From Lachnospiraceae bacterium (GTDB lineage: Bacteria; Bacillota_A; Clostridia; Lachnospirales; Lachnospiraceae), in the NCBI GenBank assembly GCA_017416055.1, contig JAFQDI010000212.1, forward strand, positions 1 to 19,524: a DNA stretch of 19,524 nt. The letters are read 5' to 3'. This document shows, in pieces, positions 2,693-13,838 of this stretch (position 1 is the stretch's first letter; every line of letters begins with the position of its first letter). A program made the translations under genes and the position numbers. The notes below the pieces were generated by a model. That model was not told the origin of the DNA. It worked only from the letters and a program-made list of their open reading frames with translations, and searched no databases.

Positions 2693-3691
2693 TTATCGCT
2701 CGAAGGATGATTTCTCCGGCAGAGCATCGTGAAACGCAGCGAGAAGAAGTTCTTTGTTCTTCTCAAAATCCAGCCCCGCGGAATCATTGTAACAAATGTA
2801 TTTGTATCGTTTATTTCGAATTGTGTCACAGGTTCTTTGGATGTTGCTTCCTCCCCGGCACCAGTATCCGTCCTTCATCTTGTTGATCGGATGAAACGCT
2901 CCGGAGGCCAGTTGCCAGTACTTGAACACGTACTGATTCAGGTCCTCGCTGTTTCTGAACTTCCTAAGAGAAGTCTCGTGGAGCCAGTCCGCCTCCGCTT
3001 TCCAAACTTCCTCCAACGTCTGTTTGCGATATGCCTGAGGCAGATGGTGAGAATTCAGCCCAAAAAATGCACGGCGATGCACACGTCCCAGATACAGGTT
3101 TTTCAACGCCGTCTTCGGGTCTCTGACGCTGAACCACTTGTCCGGATGTGCCTTCTTGCAGGCCTGCTTGTCAAAATGCTGATTGAGGAAGATGATCGCA
3201 TTCGAATTTACTCCGATCGTCGCATCTCTCCGGTTCAATCGGAGCGGCTGTTCTTCCAGACTGTCACAGGGAAGCCCGTCCACAAAGAAGTCTGTGGGTT
3301 TCACCGGCGCAGTCAGATAACAGTCATCGTTGAAGTATACAAACTGTTCCGCCAGACCCTCAATCCGATGCATATTCAACTCAATGGGATGCGAGCTGAA
3401 GGTGGGCAGATATTCCGCCGGAAGGTAATCCTCGTGGCGGACGATATTCAGTTTCGGATGCTCGGTCTTAAGCCAGGCCGGGATCTCCCCCCAAGTAATC
3501 AGGTGGATCCGGTTCACCCACGGCGCATATTTCTCCACCGCCCGAAACCAATAGTGCAAGGTACCCCAGTCCCGGTAACGCACCGATACACCGGCTTTGC
3601 ACACATCTCCCTCGTAATGTTTCTTCAGTTCTGCCTGCCATTCCGGGTTGCTTCCGTCCACCCAGGGAATCACAAAATCAATTTTTTCCAT
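2693..3691 (-). CDS. Stealth-family sugar-1-phosphate transferase, copy 3 of 3
   Basis: 332 residues with the four conserved regions of the Stealth family in order. CR1 is IDFVIPWVDGSNPEW (4-18). CR2 runs from YRDWGTLHYWFRAVEKYAPW (39-58) through YFNDD (119-123) and TAPVKPTDFF (127-136). CR3 carries HHLPQAYRK (215-223), and CR4 is ICYND (299-303) with the ending LPEKSSFER. Stealth proteins (bacterial SacB, CpsY and relatives; also the eukaryotic GlcNAc-1-phosphotransferase alpha/beta subunit) transfer a hexose-1-phosphate to make phosphodiester linkages, using the N-D-D region for metal/substrate binding. It is cytosolic or membrane-peripheral, as no signal or membrane helix is visible. The ribosome binding site AAGGA sits close to the ATG, and the gene starts nine bases after copy 2 ends. 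The central stretch of about 145-215 differs most from its sisters. Sugar donor unknown. Confidence 0.9.
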   Translation of the reverse strand: MEKIDFVIPWVDGSNPEWQAELKKHYEGDVCKAGVSVRYRDWGTLHYWFRAVEKYAPWVNRIHLITWGEIPAWLKTEHPKLNIVRHEDYLPAEYLPTFSSHPIELNMHRIEGLAEQFVYFNDDCYLTAPVKPTDFFVDGLPCDSLEEQPLRLNRRDATIGVNSNAIIFLNQHFDKQACKKAHPDKWFSVRDPKTALKNLYLGRVHRRAFFGLNSHHLPQAYRKQTLEEVWKAEADWLHETSLRKFRNSEDLNQYVFKYWQLASGAFHPINKMKDGYWCRGGSNIQRTCDTIRNKRYKYICYNDSAGLDFEKNKELLLAAFHDALPEKSSFER

Positions 3692-3700
3692 ACTCGTTCC

Positions 3701-4699
3701 TTATCGCTCAAACGCAGATTTCTCCGGCAAAGCGTCGTTAAATGCCGCGTGGAGCAAGGGTTTATTCGTGTCAAAGTCCACATCCGGCGCATCATTATAA
3801 CAAATATATTTATACTGTCCCGAGCGAATCGCCCGACAGGCTCCGTCAATGTTGTATCCTCCCGGGAACCAGGTTCCGTTCTTTCGTTTATTGTAGGGAT
3901 GGAATTTTCCTGAAGCAAGCTGCCAGAATTTGAACACACACTGGCTCACATCCCGGGTATCACGGAATTTGTGCGAGCTGGTCTCAGCAAGCAGTTCGGG
4001 GTCTGCTTTCCACACTGCCTTAAAGGTCTCCTTCAGGTACGCCTGTGGTAAATGATGAACATTCAATCCAAAAAAGCTGTCTCTGCGGATAAAATAGAGC
4101 ATGAGATTTTTCAAGGTCACGTAAGGGGTCCTGAGACTGTACCACTTCTTCCAATGCTTGCGTTTGCACTCCGCTTTCTTAAAGTGTTCGTTTAAAAAAA
4201 TCACATCGTTTGCCTTGATATTGATCATCTGGGATCGCTCTTTCAAGGGCAATGGTGTCTCATCGATGACGTCACAGGGAAGCCCCTTGACGAAGAAATC
4301 CGTCGGTTTCACCGGTGCTGTCAGGTAAAAATCATCATTGAAATAGACAAATTTTTCCGCCAGTCCCGGGATCCGGTGCAGATTCAGTTCGATCGGATGA
4401 GAACTAAAGGTGGGAAGGTATTCCTCCGGAATATAGTCCTCATGGCGAACCACATGAAGTTTCGGGTGTTCGGTGTTCAGCCAGTCAGGCACCGGTCCCC
4501 AAGTAATCAAATGAATCCGGTTCACCCACGGAGCGTACTTTTCCACCGCGCGGAACCAGTAACGAAGCGTCCCCCAATCGCGATAACGGATCGTCTGCCC
4601 ATCTGAAGTCTGGGGATCCTGACGGTAACGGGCACGCTCAGCCAACCAGGCAGGATCGCTTCCGTCCACCCAGGCAACTACAAAATCTATCTTTTCCAT
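3701..4699 (-). CDS. Stealth-family sugar-1-phosphate transferase, copy 2 of 3
   Basis: 332 residues, the same length as copy 3 and sharing long identical blocks with it: YRDWGTLRYWFRAVEKYAPW, THPKL-like TEHPKL, EYLPTFSSHPIELNLHRIPG, YFNDDFYLTAPVKPTDFF, HHLPQAYLK and the ending LPEKSAFER. All four Stealth conserved regions are present, so it should be an active hexose-1-phosphate transferase. One difference is in CR1, where FVVAWVDG replaces the FVIPWVDG of the other two copies. The middle third (about 145-215), which lies between CR2 and CR3, is divergent and is a plausible place for acceptor or donor specificity, though that is inference. GAGGAG is present seven bases upstream of the ATG, and copy 1 ends 11 bases before the start, which places all three in one transcript. 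Confidence 0.9.
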   Translation of the reverse strand: MEKIDFVVAWVDGSDPAWLAERARYRQDPQTSDGQTIRYRDWGTLRYWFRAVEKYAPWVNRIHLITWGPVPDWLNTEHPKLHVVRHEDYIPEEYLPTFSSHPIELNLHRIPGLAEKFVYFNDDFYLTAPVKPTDFFVKGLPCDVIDETPLPLKERSQMINIKANDVIFLNEHFKKAECKRKHWKKWYSLRTPYVTLKNLMLYFIRRDSFFGLNVHHLPQAYLKETFKAVWKADPELLAETSSHKFRDTRDVSQCVFKFWQLASGKFHPYNKRKNGTWFPGGYNIDGACRAIRSGQYKYICYNDAPDVDFDTNKPLLHAAFNDALPEKSAFER

Positions 4700-4710
4700 C
4701 TATCTACTCC

Positions 4711-5745
4711 TCAACGTTCAAACGAGGATTTTTCCGGCAGCATTTCAGAAAAAACCTCATGAAGCGCACTCTTTGCCACTTCAAAGTCTATCCCGACTCC
4801 ATCATTGACACATATCACTTTGTATCGGTGCTTTCTGATTACATTCTTAATCACTTGCGTTTTCTTGCTGCTGTAATATGGGCGACCGTTCCCTCGCATG
4901 TTATACGGATGGTACTGACCGGTCAGCAACTGATAATACTTGAAAATATACTGGTTCACATCCCGCCAATCGCGGAAACGGTGACTGCTGGTCTCCTCTA
5001 ACAGCTCCGGCTCCAGCTCCCACACTTTTTCCAGTGTACTCTTTAAAAACGGTTGGTGAATGTGATAATTGCAAAAGCCAAAAAAGCGATTGCTTCTCAC
5101 CGTGATGGCCGCAAGGTTCTTTACCGTGTCAACCGGATTTTTCGTGAACACCCATCTGAACAGGTGCTTCTTTATCAACGCGCGTCGCGAAAAATGTCGA
5201 TTCACAAAGGAAACATCATTCAGCAAAATATAACTGAACGGATTCGAATTGTCACAAGTGATCGGCGTCTCTGCAAGCGAGTCACACGGGAGTCCGTTTA
5301 CAAAAAAGTCCGTCGGCTTCACCGGTGCCGTCAGATATACATCATCGTTGAAATAAACAAACTGTTCTGCCAGGCCGGGAATTCGGTGCAAATTCAGTTC
5401 AATCGGATTCGCGCTGAAGGTCGGAAGGTACTCCTCCGGTATATAGTCCCGATGATAAACGATATTCAGTTTCGGATGCTCCTGTACCAGCCACTGCGGC
5501 ACATGATCCCAAATCACCAAATGAATCCTGTTTACCCAAGGCGCATATTTTTCCACGCTTCTGAACCAGTAATGCAGTGTGTCCCAGTCGCGATAACGGA
5601 TCGCCTGTGCATCCACCGGTCCGGTCTTAAGCCCGGAATTCTGCGTTTCCATATTCAAATAGTGATTTTTCAGTTCAAGCCACTCCCGATCGGTCCCGTC
5701 CACCCAGGGAATTACGAAATCGATGGGCCGTTCATTCTTTCTCAT
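4711..5745 (-). CDS. Stealth-family sugar-1-phosphate transferase, copy 1 of 3 (operon's first gene)
   Basis: 344 residues, the longest and most divergent of the three. CR1 is IDFVIPWVDGTDREW (8-22). An insertion of about a dozen residues precedes the CR2 start YRDWDTLHYWFRSVEKYAPW (51-70). YFNDDVYLTAPVKPTDFF is at 131-148. CR3 reads YHIHQPFLK where the sisters have HHLPQAY. CR4 is CVND (312-315), and the ending LPEKSSFER is shared. The ATG at 5745 has AGGGAG five bases upstream. A good extended -10 promoter lies about 70 bases further up, so this is the first gene of the Stealth-pyruvyl transferase-flippase operon. It is divergent from wecB. The reaction is expected to be transfer of a sugar-1-phosphate to a growing glycan; the differing CR3 suggests a different acceptor from copies 2 and 3. 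Family is certain; specificity is unknown. Confidence 0.9.
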   Translation of the reverse strand: MRKNERPIDFVIPWVDGTDREWLELKNHYLNMETQNSGLKTGPVDAQAIRYRDWDTLHYWFRSVEKYAPWVNRIHLVIWDHVPQWLVQEHPKLNIVYHRDYIPEEYLPTFSANPIELNLHRIPGLAEQFVYFNDDVYLTAPVKPTDFFVNGLPCDSLAETPITCDNSNPFSYILLNDVSFVNRHFSRRALIKKHLFRWVFTKNPVDTVKNLAAITVRSNRFFGFCNYHIHQPFLKSTLEKVWELEPELLEETSSHRFRDWRDVNQYIFKYYQLLTGQYHPYNMRGNGRPYYSSKKTQVIKNVIRKHRYKVICVNDGVGIDFEVAKSALHEVFSEMLPEKSSFER

Positions 5746-7290: not shown

Positions 7291-7782
7291 TTAAATTGAA
7301 TTGTCAAACACAAAACCAACTACATCCTGATCCTTCTCAATGAATGTATCATAGTTGTCATTTGTATACTCACTAACAACTCTTTTCCAGAACTTCTGTG
7401 CCGGCATATTGTTCCCCCATATCGTTATTTCCCACCCACCGGGAAATAAATCAAATATTTTTTTCGAAACATACTTTCCAACACCCCGTTTGCGATATTT
7501 TTTCATCACGAAAAACTCTGCAATATTGTGAGGGTTCGATAACTGACTGTGTTCACAACACGATCTAACCAACACCAATCCTGCAATTTTCCCTTCAACT
7601 CTGATAAAAAAGGGATATCTTCCCTCTTCATTCCAGTAGTCGTCAATACGTGGATATCCAAAGTATCCATACTCATTGATATCGTCATCGGAAAACTCTG
7701 AAAAATCATAGTTATATAATTCCATCATCTGAACGAAAACAGATTTTTGCTCAATCAAAATAGGTTCAACACAGATTTCCAT
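7291..7782 (-). CDS. GNAT-family N-acetyltransferase
   Basis: 163 residues. The acetyl-CoA binding motif A is visible as EFFVMKKYRKRGVGKYVSKKIF, with the R-x-x-G-x-G turn RKRGVG. Before it is the strand GKIAGLVLVRSC, and after it a C-terminal AQKFWKRVVSEY strand-helix, all typical of the GNAT fold. It should transfer an acetyl group from acetyl-CoA to an amine; the acceptor cannot be told. The start has AAGGAGG five bases upstream. It lies 27 bases behind the ABC exporter gene with no terminator between, so it is probably co-transcribed. Its base composition is clearly AT-richer than the exporter genes, with many AAA, GAA and AAT codons, which suggests separate acquisition. A drug-modifying role next to a transporter is possible but unproven. 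Confidence 0.82.
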   Translation of the reverse strand: MEICVEPILIEQKSVFVQMMELYNYDFSEFSDDDINEYGYFGYPRIDDYWNEEGRYPFFIRVEGKIAGLVLVRSCCEHSQLSNPHNIAEFFVMKKYRKRGVGKYVSKKIFDLFPGGWEITIWGNNMPAQKFWKRVVSEYTNDNYDTFIEKDQDVVGFVFDNSI

Positions 7783-7809: not shown

Positions 7810-9597
7810 TCACCCCACCAGTACATCCTTAAACTGCGCACAGTATAGGTCGTAGTAAGCACCTTTTTTCTGAAGCAACTCCTGATGCGTCCCCGCCTCC
7901 AGTATCCTCTGGTCGTCCACCACAAAAATCCGATCTGCCTTGCGGATGGTGGAGAGGCGATGAGCGATCACGAACGAAGTCCTTCCTGACAAGAGCGCCT
8001 CGATTCCGTTCTGCACCATGATCTCGGTGTGGGTATCGATGCTGGACGTCGCCTCGTCCAGGATGAGCACGCGGGGCTTCGCGATCAGCGTTCTGGCAAA
8101 GGCTACCAACTGACGCTGTCCCACGGACAAACCGCTCCCGCTCTGCACTTCGGTGTCATAACCTTTTTCTGTCTTCATGATAAAATCGTGCGCTCCCACC
8201 GTCTTCGCCGCCCAGATCACTTCCTCATCGGTGGCGTCCAGCTTTCCGTAGCGGATATTGTCGGCGATGGTGCCGGTGAACATGAAATTTTCCTGGGTCA
8301 TGATACCCATCTGACTTCTCAGACTCTCCATGGTCACATCCTGCACCGGATGACCGTCGATGCGAATCTCGCCCGCCTTTACATCGTAAAACCGGCTGAT
8401 CAGATTGATGATGGTGGTCTTTCCGGCTCCCGTAGGTCCTACCAGCGCGATAGTCTCACCGGGCTTGATATCGAAGCAGATGTCCTTGATGACATCCCGC
8501 TCCGGCTCGTCCGGATAAGCGAAGGTCACATGGTCAAACTCCACCCGCCCTTCGATCTCCGGCAGTTCGTAGGCTCCCGCCTTGTCCGCCAGCTCCGGCT
8601 CCGTGTCCAGGATATCGAAGATGCGCTCCGCACCGGAAATATTGTTCACGATCTTGTTGTACAGGCTGGCCAAATTACGGATCGGACTCCAGAACATACT
8701 CAGATAGGTAGCAAAGGCAATAAATGTACCCACCTCAGTGCCGTCCATACCCAACAGTTGAATACCGATATAGTAGAGCAGAAATCCGCCCATGCCCCAA
8801 GTCAGATCAATGGTCGGGCCAAAGGCGTCCGCTAGAAGCACCGCACGGATGAAGGATTTTCGGTGTTCACCCACCACATGTTCAAAGGTCTTCTCCGACT
8901 CTGCTTCCGCGCAGAAGCTCTGCACCACCTTGATTCCGGAGAAGTTCTCGTGGGTAAAGGCGTTGATATTGGAGGTTTTCTGGCGCACGTCCAGCCAGCG
9001 CCCGTGGCCGAGGATCATGACCGCATACATTCCTACCAGCAAAATCGGCAGGGTGGCGATGGCCGCCATCGCCAGAGGTGGACTCTTCACCAGCATGATC
9101 GTGATCACGGCGGTCACGGTGATCATATCGGGAATCAGCGTGGTCACACTGTCGGACATCATATCTTTCAGCGCGTTCACGTCCCCGATGATCCGGGCCA
9201 GAATCTTTCCTGTAGGACGGCCGTCAAAGAACTGCAGTCCCAGCGTCTGAATATGGGTGTACAGCTCCTCGCGGATCTTCAGCACGATCTCGTTGGAGAT
9301 CTTCGCCATCATAATCATCCGGGCTTTCACACCGATGATCCAGATTACGTTGAGCACAAGCGCCACCACGCCCAGCCCCAAAAGCCCCCTCATATCTTTA
9401 TTCGCCACATGCACATTGATCGCCCGCTCAATAATCAGCGGGTTCACCAGTGCGATGGCGATGGTCACCGCCATGATGCCCAGCACCACAACGATTTTCT
9501 TTTTATAAGCGAACAGATACCGGTACAGCCGGGCCAGCGTCACCCGCTTCGGCACTGCCCGCGATACTTCGTCCTCGCGAAATGAATTTACAGACAT
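7810..9597 (-). CDS. ABC exporter half-transporter, BmrD-like subunit (intact Walker B)
   Basis: 595 residues with six membrane helices in the first 320 residues and an ATPase domain after about 350. Visible motifs are Walker A GPTGAGKT (387-394), Q-loop Q435, signature LSVGQ (490-494), Walker B LILDE with catalytic E515, D-loop residues around SSID, and switch H546. The catalytic glutamate is intact but the signature has V in place of the usual second G. This complements the partner, whose Walker B is degenerate and whose signature is canonical, so one of the two composite ATP sites would be catalytic and the other degenerate, as in BmrCD, LmrCD and TM287/288. The substrate is probably a drug, peptide or lipid-like compound. 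The start has GGAGGAG upstream, and the gene overlaps its partner by ten bases, implying coupled translation. Confidence 0.92.
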   Translation of the reverse strand: MSVNSFREDEVSRAVPKRVTLARLYRYLFAYKKKIVVVLGIMAVTIAIALVNPLIIERAINVHVANKDMRGLLGLGVVALVLNVIWIIGVKARMIMMAKISNEIVLKIREELYTHIQTLGLQFFDGRPTGKILARIIGDVNALKDMMSDSVTTLIPDMITVTAVITIMLVKSPPLAMAAIATLPILLVGMYAVMILGHGRWLDVRQKTSNINAFTHENFSGIKVVQSFCAEAESEKTFEHVVGEHRKSFIRAVLLADAFGPTIDLTWGMGGFLLYYIGIQLLGMDGTEVGTFIAFATYLSMFWSPIRNLASLYNKIVNNISGAERIFDILDTEPELADKAGAYELPEIEGRVEFDHVTFAYPDEPERDVIKDICFDIKPGETIALVGPTGAGKTTIINLISRFYDVKAGEIRIDGHPVQDVTMESLRSQMGIMTQENFMFTGTIADNIRYGKLDATDEEVIWAAKTVGAHDFIMKTEKGYDTEVQSGSGLSVGQRQLVAFARTLIAKPRVLILDEATSSIDTHTEIMVQNGIEALLSGRTSFVIAHRLSTIRKADRIFVVDDQRILEAGTHQELLQKKGAYYDLYCAQFKDVLVG

Positions 9598-11321
9598 AAC
9601 ATCAACTCCTCCGGTCTCTCATACTGTGCCACAAAGGTATCATAATAGCGGCCTTTCTTCTCCATGAGGCTGTCGTGAGTGCCGCGCTCCACGACCTTTC
9701 CACCCTCTAAGATAATAATCTCGTCCGCATGACGCACCGCGGAAATACGGTGAGCGATGATCACCTTCGTCATGCCCCGGAGTCCGTTCAGTTCCTTCTG
9801 GATCTCGTGCTCCGTCTCCATATCCAGCGCGGAGGTGGAGTCATCCAAAAACAGAATCGGTGCGTCCTTCGCCAGCGCTCTCGCGATAGAAAGTCTCTGC
9901 TTCTGCCCGCCGGACAGTCCAACGCCCTTCTCGCCGATCACGGTCTCGTACTCTTTCGGCAGCTTTGACACAAACTCATGGGCTCTCGCCTTCTTCGCGG
10001 AATCCACCATCACCTCGTCAGTCATCGCATCCTTACTTCCGATCCGCAGGTTTTCCGCAACCGTATCCGAAAACAGGAACACATCCTGCATAACCACTGA
10101 GATATTTTTTCTGAGGCAATGCAGATCAAGTTTGCGCACGTCCACGCCGTCCACCGACACACTTCCACCGGTCACATCGTAGAATCGCTCCGCCAGATTC
10201 ACGATCGTCGTCTTTCCCGATCCGGTCATTCCCATAATACCCAGCGTCTTTCCGGCGGGAACAGTGAAACTCACATCCTCCAGAATCTTCTGTCCGTGCA
10301 GTTCCAAACTTACCTGATCAAAGGCCAGTTCACCCCGCACCAGCGGCAAATCTACCCCATCCTCAGGGGAAGCAATCTCCGGCTTCTCCTCCAGAATCTT
10401 ATTGATTTTCTTATTGGAAGCAAAGGCCGCCGCCATGCAGTTCGCCACCCAGCCAAGAATCTCCATCGGCCAGACAATATTGTTCGCATACTCGATGAAC
10501 TCGCCCAGCTTTCCTAAGGTAATTCGGTCCTGCACCACAAACATGCCTCCGATGATGACGGAAAGGAGCAGCATGACCTTGGTCAAAAAGGAAATGTAGG
10601 GATCATACTTCGCCATCGTCTTCGCCAGACGCATATTCAGCTCATAGTAGCGACTGTTGTGCTTTTTAAACTTCGCGATCTCGTGCTTTCCGCGGAAAAA
10701 GGCCTTTACCGTGCGCACACCGGCCAGATTCTCCTGGGCGACCGTGTTCAGCTCCGCATTTTCCTCGCTGATATCGTCATAGACCTTATCCAGGCCCTTT
10801 TCCAGCTTCACCGCAATAAAACCCACCATGGGCATCACGCACAGCGGAATCAGCGTCAAGAGCGGGTCAATACGAATCATGTTCGTCAGGACCATAATCG
10901 TATGAACAATGGCCTCCACACACAGAAGGCCCACAAAGCCCATGAAATCCCAAACGCGCTCCGTGTCATCCTTCACCCGGGCCATCAACTCTCCCGTATT
11001 GTTCTTCTCGAAAAAGCCCACGTTCATCTTCTCGATGTGGCGAAACAGCTTTTGTCTCAGATCCCTTGCGATCGACACGCCGATACAGTCCGCTGTGAAT
11101 TCCTGCAGATACTTAAACAGGCCGCGCCCGATACCGATGCCGAGAAGTCCCAGCACCAGTCCGATCAACAGTTCCTTCCGACCGCCCACCAACACATCGT
11201 CAATGATCCGCCCGATGATCTTCGGCGACTGCATATCCAGCCAGATGCCTAAGTACAGACAGACCAGCGCGAACAGATAGTGAAACTTATACTTGTAAAA
11301 ATACCGTCCTAATCCCTTCAT
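9588..11321 (-). CDS. ABC exporter half-transporter, BmrC-like subunit (degenerate Walker B)
   Basis: 577 residues from the ATG at 11321, which has AAGGAG directly upstream; the longer frame beginning with GTG at 11360 has no such site and is rejected. Six membrane helices occupy about residues 13-300. The ATPase part shows Walker A GMTGSGKT (364-371), Q412, canonical signature LSGGQ (469-473) and switch H524. Walker B reads ILFLDD, with D494 where the catalytic glutamate normally sits. That substitution marks the degenerate subunit of heterodimeric exporters such as BmrC and TM287. The length is close to BmrC. The order degenerate-first, catalytic-second is the same as bmrC-bmrD. Expression is likely controlled by the leader ORF and two terminators just upstream (11371-11567). 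Confidence 0.92.
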   Translation of the reverse strand: MKGLGRYFYKYKFHYLFALVCLYLGIWLDMQSPKIIGRIIDDVLVGGRKELLIGLVLGLLGIGIGRGLFKYLQEFTADCIGVSIARDLRQKLFRHIEKMNVGFFEKNNTGELMARVKDDTERVWDFMGFVGLLCVEAIVHTIMVLTNMIRIDPLLTLIPLCVMPMVGFIAVKLEKGLDKVYDDISEENAELNTVAQENLAGVRTVKAFFRGKHEIAKFKKHNSRYYELNMRLAKTMAKYDPYISFLTKVMLLLSVIIGGMFVVQDRITLGKLGEFIEYANNIVWPMEILGWVANCMAAAFASNKKINKILEEKPEIASPEDGVDLPLVRGELAFDQVSLELHGQKILEDVSFTVPAGKTLGIMGMTGSGKTTIVNLAERFYDVTGGSVSVDGVDVRKLDLHCLRKNISVVMQDVFLFSDTVAENLRIGSKDAMTDEVMVDSAKKARAHEFVSKLPKEYETVIGEKGVGLSGGQKQRLSIARALAKDAPILFLDDSTSALDMETEHEIQKELNGLRGMTKVIIAHRISAVRHADEIIILEGGKVVERGTHDSLMEKKGRYYDTFVAQYERPEELMLCL

Positions 11322-11370
11322 CTCTCTCCTTCTCCACTCAATCTCTCTTTTCCCGAACACAATTTATGAA

Positions 11371-11421
11371 ATAAAAACACCGTGCGTAAACACATCCTTT
11401 CGGCGTTTTACATCACGGTGT
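11371..11421 (-). terminator. Second tandem intrinsic terminator before the ABC exporter
   Basis: On the minus strand ACACCGTG (11421-11414) pairs with CACGGTGT (11384-11377), with further inner pairing between TAAAAC-like and GTTTAC-like segments. The hairpin is followed directly by TTTTTAT. It ends about 50 bases before the exporter start codon and so lies in its 5' leader. Confidence 0.75.
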
Positions 11422-11434
11422 CATCCACTTTTGA

Positions 11435-11467
11435 TATAAAAACGCCGCAGTCACACAGACTGCGGCG
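11435..11467 (-). terminator. First intrinsic terminator (attenuator) after the leader ORF
   Basis: On the minus strand CGCCGCAGTC (11467-11458) pairs perfectly with GACTGCGGCG (11452-11443) around the loop TGTGT, and a TTTTTATAT tract follows. This ten-base GC-rich stem with T-run is a textbook intrinsic terminator, 29 bases after the leader stop codon. Confidence 0.88.
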
Positions 11468-11495
11468 CAAACTCCATCAAATAAGTCCTATCGAC

Positions 11496-11567
11496 TCAAG
11501 AGAAATTCACGGAGGCAGACTGTGATCCAACGAAATTCACACAAACATTAAACAGTAACATGGTCAT
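11496..11567 (-). CDS. 23-residue leader peptide of the ABC exporter operon
   Basis: A 23-codon ORF begins MTMLLFNVCV and ends SASVNFS before TGA. It is supported by position, not homology: AGGAGG lies seven bases before the ATG in an ideal arrangement, a good promoter is about 50 bases upstream, and two intrinsic terminators follow before the exporter genes. The same logic governs bmrB upstream of bmrCD in Bacillus subtilis, where ribosome stalling in a leader peptide prevents termination. The peptide is hydrophobic at its N-terminus and repeats VNF at residues 10-12 and 20-22; at DNA level GTGAATTTC occurs twice. The ribosome binding site can pair with codons 17-19 (GGAGGCA with TGCCTCC), offering a translation-dependent fold. 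I do not recognise the peptide itself. Confidence 0.62.
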   Translation of the reverse strand: MTMLLFNVCVNFVGSQSASVNFS

Positions 11568-11617
11568 GGTGGTGCCTCCTTTCTCCTATATTTTTGTTGC
11601 GACCAACAACACTATTT

Positions 11618-11646
11618 ACTATACAGCGGTTTTCAGGATTTGTAAA
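11618..11646 (-). promoter_or_regulatory. Sigma-A promoter of the leader peptide-ABC exporter operon
   Basis: On the minus strand TTTACA (11646-11641), 17 bases, TATAGT (11623-11618). Transcription would start near 11611. Immediately after it the inverted repeat TTGTTG-GTCG-CAACAA (11609-11594) could be a small 5' hairpin or an operator. Confidence 0.75.
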
Positions 11647-13636: not shown

Positions 13637-13838
13637 CAAAACGTCCTGCCCTTAAAACCGACTGTGACCGTTACCGCCCGAACGACTAGGCTCCGGCGCC
13701 CTACATCACACGAAGAGGCCACTTAGTGCTGCTTCCTTCCGGACCTGACACGGTTCATGGTTTTCGTTGCGTAAGACCGAAACGTCAAACATCGCCCAAG
13801 ACGGGCTGCATCACAGCCGATTTTAAAGACAGGACGCA
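13637..13838 (-). ncRNA. ffs: Signal recognition particle RNA (about 200 nt form)
   Basis: The minus strand contains the SRP RNA domain IV signature GTCAGGTCCGGAAGGAAGC followed by AGCAC, the tetraloop and symmetric/asymmetric loops that bind Ffh. The flanks TTGACGTTTCGGTC and GCAACG match the Firmicutes form before the core, and GATGTAGGGCGCCGGAGCC follows it. The conserved core covers roughly 13683-13790. The transcript appears longer: 5' CGTCCTGTC...GGCTGTGA (from 13836) pairs with 3' TCACAGTC...GCAGGACG (ending 13642) over about 26 positions with G-U pairs, and TTTTGT follows. Together with the promoter this gives about 202 bases, between the usual small (about 100) and large (about 270) forms. 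The RNA scaffolds Ffh-FtsY targeting of membrane proteins. Gene identity is near certain; exact ends are inferred from promoter and pairing. Confidence 0.93.

What the first reader, a model, noticed from the sequence alone, without database searches (positions are those of the whole stretch)
11371..11646. Leader peptide and two tandem terminators in front of a BmrCD-like exporter
Between a good promoter and the exporter start codon lie a 23-codon ORF with an ideal AGGAGG site, a ten-base-stem intrinsic terminator and a second terminator hairpin. This is the layout of ribosome-mediated transcription attenuation, established for bmrB-bmrCD in Bacillus subtilis. Two terminators in series imply very tight shut-off, with antibiotic-stalled ribosomes as the likely inducer. 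The leader sequence is not one I recognise, so it may be a new member of this regulator class.
Basis: partly seen in the sequence, partly recalled or inferred. Interest (0 to 1): 0.75.

Follow-up and report, generated by a model that had tools for sequence, protein, structure and literature searches.

The report
Ribosome-tripped switch guarding an exporter
In front of a pump gene of a bacterium akin to gut Lachnospiraceae lies a stretch of RNA that seems to read whether ribosomes are stuck: normally it would stop transcription, and a stuck ribosome would flip it open; related bacteria carry the same switch in different letters.

Summary
On the minus strand a promoter-like pair (11646-11618), a 23-codon leader ORF with strong RBS (11567-11496) and two intrinsic terminators (T1 11468-11442, T2 11422-11376) precede two ABC half-exporters (11321-7810). 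Comparison with 98 other non-redundant leaders before related exporters, mostly Lachnospiraceae, supports a ribosome-mediated transcription attenuator. What is conserved is RNA more than peptide. The 3' end of the ORF is a switch strand (S) that can pair with the leader's own Shine-Dalgarno (anti-antiterminator) or with the 5' arm and loop of T1 (antiterminator). Both pairings are stronger within a locus than between loci (0 of 20000 permutations), and T1's loop covaries with the ORF end. In the window and some relatives the 3' side of T1 is also complementary to the 5' half of T2, which suggests a relay opening both terminators; this part is weaker, and equilibrium folding speaks partly against it. 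No ribosome, drug or transcript was tested. Closest known: vmlR, bmrB-bmrCD, ermK. New variant of a known kind. Interest 0.6.

The parts
11618..11646 (-). promoter-like pair, TTTACA-17-TATAGT
   Evidence: a promoter match precedes 66 of 99 leaders, 0.8 on average in shuffles (biased, because the ORF picker favoured ORFs with such a match)
11573..11586 (-). core of the leader Shine-Dalgarno strand, GGAGAAAGGAGGCA; pairs with the ORF 3' end (P1, anti-antiterminator)
   Evidence: SD x S duplex -25.6 kcal/mol; matched better than permuted, 0/20000, 35 leaders including the window
11496..11567 (-). leader ORF, 23 codons, MTMLLFNVCVNFVGSQSASVNFS
   Evidence: leader ORF plus terminator in 67 of 80 relatives
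11496..11530 (-). switch strand S at the ORF 3' end: 11530-11496 in the best duplex with the SD region, 11525-11508 in the best duplex with T1
   Evidence: the two uses overlap by 18 nt
11442..11468 (-). terminator T1; its 5' arm and loop (11468-11453) can also pair with S (P2, antiterminator, -15.8 kcal/mol)
   Evidence: T1 -22.1 kcal/mol
11425..11448 (-). T1 3' arm, U-tract and tail, complementary to the T2 5' half at 11421-11400 (P3)
   Evidence: -21.7 kcal/mol; z -4.4, 0 of 300 shuffles as good
11376..11422 (-). terminator T2 (5' half and loop 11422-11398)
   Evidence: -22.1 kcal/mol
11319..11335 (-). exporter RBS and ATG
9588..11321 (-). ABC half-exporter 1 (577 aa); Walker B ends LDD (degenerate)
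7810..9597 (-). ABC half-exporter 2 (595 aa); Walker B LDE, signature LSVGQ

Best explanation
A ribosome-mediated transcription attenuator built as a chain of RNA segments SD - S - T1a - T1b - T2a - T2b, each able to pair with its neighbour. OFF: a ribosome running to the stop codon covers S, so T1 forms and transcription ends; after it leaves, S can pair with the leader SD and T1 still forms (less surely so if no ribosome ever loads). ON: a ribosome held at or near the leader start covers the SD, S is free when the 5' arm of T1 emerges, S:T1a forms first and T1 is blocked; in the window the freed T1b may then pair with T2a and hinder T2. Shown by sequence and covariation: the parts, P1 (SD:S), P2 (S:T1a) and their overlap in S. 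Supported but not universal: P3 (T1b:T2a). Inferred: that stalled ribosomes trigger it, that ribosome-targeting drugs cause the stall, and that the exporter removes such compounds.
For: Matched versus permuted duplex energies. 35 leaders of the window's type, window included: SDxS 0/20000, SxT1a 0/20000, T1bxT2a (n=31) 0/20000; four non-neighbour controls 17873, 6835, 9515 and 19537 of 20000. One leader per exporter group under 80% identity in the first 300 aa (n=19, 19, 15): 0, 3, 3 of 20000; controls 1945 or more. Without the window's clade (n=28, 28, 25): 0, 0, 1 of 20000. T1-loop side of P2: 171 of 210 cells pair against 143.8 (sd 4.4) permuted, 0/20000; 5, 6 and 5 pair types at three successive positions (32, 29 and 15 of 35 paired); slid registers 95, 83, 85. 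P1 and P2 use overlapping bases of S (6 nt or more in 33 of 35 and 49 of 64). Equilibrium folding at the length where T1a is out, 6 or more S:T1a pairs: 12 of 35 bare, 32 and 33 of 35 with a ribosome at codon 2 or 5, 2 of 35 with shuffled spacers (mean of ten shuffles each), none with a ribosome at the stop, by construction. The core motif of S starts a median 22 nt before the ORF end, within a terminating ribosome's footprint (footprint size recalled).
Against: Once T1 is complete, equilibrium folding prefers it to S:T1a even with the start region masked in 11 of 12 loci examined (L002 is the exception), so antitermination must be kinetic. In the bare window RNA S:T1a already prevails when T1a is out (11.8 pairs against 4.3 for SD:S), so the untranslated leader may leak. 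Relay: once T2 is complete, T2 forms in the window in every ribosome state (19.2 pairs); the tail of T1 pairs with T2a (8.7 pairs) even with the ribosome at the stop and T1 intact; P3 beats dinucleotide shuffles individually in 10 of 31 (7 of 23); the T1 3' arm alone shows no matched signal (14957/20000), the signal sitting in the tail (3/20000); P3 is not significant in the other type (2194/20000, n=11; 3799/20000, n=7), where one control, T1bxT2b, reached 601/20000. Per-locus shuffle tests reach p 0.05 in only 14 of 25 for P1 and 11 of 25 for P2; controls 4, 1, 3 of 23 and 2 of 25. In one search the P2 register fits poorly in L002, L024, L066 and L110. 7 of 80 relatives show no leader by my picker. 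The NusG pause motif TTNTTT is not clearly enriched between stop and T1 (23 of 99 against 18.0, sd 3.1; 3 of 35 in the window's type). No expression data.
Confidence: 0.85

Rival explanations
1. Constitutive double terminator: T1 and T2 simply set a low basal level, and the SD:S hairpin only limits translation of a dispensable ORF.
For: In the window T1 and T2 win over the alternative pairings at equilibrium once complete.
Against: Does not explain why the T1 loop covaries with the leader ORF end, nor why the same bases of S serve two partners.
Confidence: 0.06
2. The leader ORF encodes a functional small protein or a nascent-peptide stalling sequence, and its amino acids matter.
For: An ORF with strong RBS in 67 of 80 loci; the other type often ends in ITSG/ITSV-like residues, its motif mostly in one frame (44/14/4, two without).
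Against: In the window's type the conserved stretch lies in three frames (25/6/3 of 35), and at amino acids 2-8 no residue exceeds 25 of 99. A stall at specific early codons is not excluded.
Confidence: 0.08
3. A ligand- or protein-binding riboswitch or antiterminator in which translation plays no part.
For: Alternative, mutually exclusive structures are present.
Against: No Rfam family reaches its gathering score in the leader; one arm of the switch is the RBS of a recurrent ORF, and the other lies where a terminating ribosome would sit.
Confidence: 0.04

Closest known systems
vmlR leader, Bacillus subtilis (PMC9226507, abstract and passages)
   Same: uORF within an anti-antiterminator hairpin; a stalled ribosome blocks it, an antiterminator forms and prevents intrinsic termination; in read-through transcripts a further pairing is predicted to open the next hairpin.
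   Different: vmlR's next hairpin hides the gene's SD, here it is a second terminator; the uORF is MIN there, 23 codons here; it controls an ABCF protein, not an exporter; NusG-dependent pausing is part of vmlR, and its motif is not clearly enriched here.
bmrB-bmrCD, B. subtilis (PMC4191407, abstract and passages)
   Same: Translated leader ORF, terminator with predicted antiterminator and anti-antiterminator before an ABC exporter pair; induced by lincomycin, erythromycin and chloramphenicol.
   Different: bmrB is 162 bp with the terminator inside the ORF; the role of its predicted anti-antiterminator is called unclear there. I had no B. subtilis sequence to compare pairings.
ermK, Bacillus (known here through passages of PMC4335068, and PMC5418344; Kwak 1991 not read)
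   Same: Leader ORF and two adjacent Rho-independent terminators.
   Different: Controls an rRNA methylase; whether its two terminators are coupled as proposed here I did not check.
cplR, Clostridioides difficile (PMC10201436, passages)
   Same: uORF sequestered in a 5' hairpin in the repressed state, drug-stalled ribosome, terminator and antiterminator.
   Different: One terminator, which also hides the gene's SD; 3-codon uORF (MRI); ABCF gene.
mef/mel and msrD leaders (PMC4335068, PMC10314930, passages)
   Same: Ribosome-mediated transcription attenuation of resistance genes.
   Different: There a specific nascent peptide does the stalling (MsrDL); here only amino-acid counts were made, and no arrest motif was searched for.

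Membership tests
Ribosome-mediated transcription attenuators | Leader ORF with RBS between promoter and gene | tested here: met
   leader ORF plus terminator in 67 of 80 relatives
Ribosome-mediated transcription attenuators | Intrinsic terminator between leader start and gene | tested here: met
Ribosome-mediated transcription attenuators | Antiterminator that overlaps the leader ORF and excludes the terminator | tested here: met
   S:T1a, matched signal and covariation
Ribosome-mediated transcription attenuators | Read-through depends on ribosome position in the leader | tested here: inconclusive
   Only modelled by equilibrium folding; no experiment
Ribosome-mediated transcription attenuators | Induction by ribosome-targeting drugs | not testable with these tools
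   no transcript data
bmrB-bmrCD | Terminator inside the leader ORF | tested here: not met
   T1 starts 27 nt behind the stop codon; bmrB as described in PMC4191407
bmrB-bmrCD | Exporter orthologous to BmrC/BmrD | tested here: inconclusive
   YheI and YheH chains match (1.7e-93; 2e-97) but P-glycoprotein-type and TM_0288 chains score higher; no tree made
ermK-type attenuator | Two adjacent intrinsic terminators behind a leader ORF | tested here: met
   31 of 35 leaders of the window's type have a second hairpin with U-tract
vmlR-type attenuator | uORF start region in an anti-antiterminator that a stalled ribosome would block | tested here: met
   P1, (pairing only; the blocking is modelled)
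Amino-acid attenuators (trp, his, ilv) | Run of codons for one amino acid in the leader | tested here: not met
   MTMLLFNVCVNFVGSQSASVNFS has no such run
Rfam families | Match above gathering score in the leader | tested here: not met

The most novel reading that the evidence does not exclude
A chained attenuator: one ribosome held at the leader start shifts a row of six RNA segments by one register, so that two intrinsic terminators are opened in turn (S:T1a, then T1b:T2a). Because the trigger is occupancy of the Shine-Dalgarno and not a nascent peptide, the leader's coding content is free to drift and the switch would answer to any agent that arrests ribosomes early.
Probability: 0.45. Interest if true: 0.75.

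Novelty: new variant of a known kind. Interest (0 to 1): 0.6.

Why it matters
It gives exporter loci of many gut Lachnospiraceae a recognisable and testable RNA switch, with the pairings named base by base and supported by covariation, where no Rfam family reached its threshold in the window's leader. If the relay is real, it shows how two terminators can be coupled to one ribosome event. It would also let one ask which translation inhibitors such commensals sense, by where ribosomes stop and not by which peptide they make.

Tried and rejected
Whole-genome lookup for the window: none held. Search for a leader of the same kind at other ABC exporters of one related genome: 17 of the 30 loci scanned, 450 nt upstream; only the homologous locus shows an AAGGAGG followed by two terminators (rough scan). 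Non-neighbour pairings (SDxT1a, T1bxT2b, T1axT2a, SxT2a): no matched signal in the window's type; in the other type T1bxT2b reached 601/20000 (n=11). NusG pause motif: not clearly enriched. T1-T2 coupling through the T1 3' arm alone: no matched signal; those arms are much alike between loci, so the test says little either way. B. subtilis bmrB leader as a direct comparison: the control genomes gave no loci. Literature searches for a coupled double terminator or a Lachnospiraceae leader of this kind; none seen in the listings (at most 40 rows each, open-licence papers only; no full text was read whole). The window's type was defined by the sequence of T1 after looking at the data, and the P2 register and the counted positions were fixed by eye; the permutation tests do not use that register.

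Rows dropped before the counts. From the window plus 80 loci (81), 13 dropped: L012, L015, L045, L052, L054, L055 (309 nt or less upstream; L015, L045 and L054 still show part of S and a T1) and L026, L035, L037, L047, L056, L064, L078 (no convincing leader by my picker; L056 has a leader-like ORF at -605, outside my 600 nt limit). From L081-L130 (49 usable, L129 being 58 nt), 8 duplicates (L081, L082, L083, L088, L097, L113, L117, L119) and 10 dropped by eye because ORF or T1 was not clear (L092, L093, L094, L104, L105, L107, L118, L120, L124, L128). 99 remain. T1 was set by a regex for L009 and L011, and the first hairpin skipped for L013, L022, L051, L079, L123. T2 is the next terminator and the most stable later one from then on. 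One search used 25 of the 26 then in the window's type (L065 left out). In one search the motif of L066 was placed by a pattern of its own. L131-L135 repeat loci already held.

Full report
What is there. Read on the minus strand, the window holds a promoter-like pair (11646-11618), a strong Shine-Dalgarno, a 23-codon ORF (11567-11496), a terminator T1 (11468-11442), a second terminator T2 (11422-11376) and, from 11321, two overlapping ABC half-exporters. The first has the Walker B end LDD, the second LDE with the signature LSVGQ, read directly from the translations: the pattern of a heterodimer with one degenerate site (that BmrC/BmrD and relatives share this is recalled). BmrC (YheI) and BmrD (YheH) are among the matches to solved structures, but not the best ones, so 'BmrCD-like' is fair and 'BmrCD orthologue' is untested.

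Relatives. One scan of GTDB genomes with the first half-exporter gave 80 loci (the best 80 of 470), by record title mostly Lachnospiraceae, exporter identity 52-83%. A picker that scores the RBS, an upstream promoter match and an ATG gave a leader ORF of 15-60 codons followed by a terminator in 67 of 80. A search of 397 genomes of one family and fetched regions added more. After dropping duplicates and unclear cases, listed in Tried and rejected, 99 leaders remain including the window: 35 with a T1 like the window's (type A) and 64 others (type B).

The peptide is not conserved, the RNA is. In type A the 3' end of the ORF carries a stretch near CAGYYUGCCUC. Its core lies in frame 0, 2 and 1 in 25, 6 and 3 of 35 leaders, one having no motif. 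In type B the corresponding ACCUC-like stretch is mostly in one frame (44/14/4, two without), so there a peptide role is less well excluded.

Pairing 1, SD with S. The stretch is complementary to the leader's own SD. To test more than a generic anti-SD, I compared duplex energies of each SD with its own S against other loci's S. Type A: matched -20.78, permuted -17.58 (sd 0.43), 0 of 20000; type B: -16.63 against -14.08 (sd 0.30), 0 of 20000.

Pairing 2, S with the 5' arm and loop of T1. In type A the helix runs in one register in most of the 35 rows (poorly in L002, L024, L066, L110): four pairs, a pyrimidine-pyrimidine mismatch in 33 of 35, then pairs that run into the T1 loop. On the loop side 171 of 210 cells pair, 143.8 (sd 4.4) after permutation, none of 20000 as high; three successive positions show 5, 6 and 5 pair types. 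A terminator loop has no obvious reason to follow the end of an ORF upstream unless the two meet. S uses overlapping bases for both partners (33 of 35 and 49 of 64 by 6 nt or more), so the pairings exclude each other there.

Pairing 3, T1 3' side with T2 5' side. In the window the 3' arm, U-tract and tail of T1 can form -21.7 kcal/mol with the 5' half of T2, 0 of 300 shuffles as good. Over 31 type A loci with a T2, matched -15.24, permuted -12.67 (sd 0.45), 0 of 20000, and four non-neighbour pairings show nothing. But individually 10 of 31 pass p 0.05, in 19 of 31 the best duplex uses at least 4 bp of the T1 3' arm, and the matched signal sits in the tail (3/20000), not in the arm alone (14957/20000), the arms being too alike between loci to be informative. 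Within the window's clade alone (n=6) 207 of 20000; without it (n=25) 1 of 20000. So the complementarity is well supported for the window and several others (L001, L002, L004, L019, L024, L085 among those at p 0.05), and weak or tail-only in L006-L009, L011, L014-L027 (L019 and L024 apart) and L028. In one search, 4 of 35 have no T2; L005 and L032 are two of them.

How it most likely works. Folding the window RNA in steps with the part under a ribosome removed: with a ribosome at codon 2 or 5, S:T1a is complete (11.9 pairs) when the 5' arm of T1 is out; with a ribosome at the stop it cannot form, because S is covered. When the 5' half of T2 is out, S:T1a / T1b:T2a / T1 stand at 11.6 / 15.4 / 0.5 pairs with a ribosome at codon 5, 7.7 / 14.7 / 2.9 at codon 2, 0.8 / 10.2 / 10.0 in bare RNA and 0 / 8.7 / 10.9 with a ribosome at the stop. 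So the stalled state favours the shifted register, but the T1 tail finds T2a to some extent in every state, and when T2 is complete it forms in every state (19.2 pairs). Across type A, 6 or more S:T1a pairs at the T1a stage appear in 12 of 35 bare, 32 and 33 of 35 with a ribosome at codon 2 or 5, and 2 of 35 with shuffled spacers; type B 16, 45, 51 and 4 of 64. These are equilibrium folds at fixed lengths. T1, once complete, wins over S:T1a in 11 of 12 loci examined, so the switch must be kinetic, as is usual for attenuators (recalled). The bare window RNA favours S:T1a over SD:S at the T1a stage, against a perfect default OFF.

Inference beyond the data. A ribosome that has moved well past the first codons would free the SD again, so arrest at or soon after initiation should be the best trigger; this points to drugs acting there, but it is reasoning from footprint size, recalled, and no drug is tested. 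The exporter's substrate is unknown.

Relation to what is known. The logic terminator / antiterminator / anti-antiterminator with a uORF is that of vmlR, where a further pairing in read-through transcripts is predicted to open the next hairpin (PMC9226507, passages). bmrB-bmrCD is the nearest by target gene, but its terminator lies in the ORF and the role of its anti-antiterminator is called unclear (PMC4191407, passages). Two adjacent terminators are known from ermK (passage of PMC4335068). In nine searches I saw neither this leader family in Lachnospiraceae nor two terminators coupled by a strand of the first pairing with the second. I therefore call it a new variant of a known kind.

Noticed in passing
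L026:2581-3000: Promoter-like pair and a T1-like hairpin before the exporter, but no leader ORF or S seen by eye: a possible natural loss of the switch.
   Followed up: no
window 7291-7782: GNAT acetyltransferase gene directly behind the exporter pair on the same strand, possibly in the same transcript.
   Followed up: no
window 13644-13834: Bacterial large SRP RNA on the minus strand.
   Followed up: no
L029, L030, L033, L034, L048 upstream of the exporter: A type B subgroup shares a near-identical T1 (around CCTCATGGTRATTTTRCCATGRGG) and leader C-termini with KIISGV; why the loop is so constant is only partly explained by pairing with S.
   Followed up: partly
window 2693-5745: Three similar ORFs in a row (332, 332, 344 aa) that look like one duplicated family by eye; not searched.
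   Followed up: no
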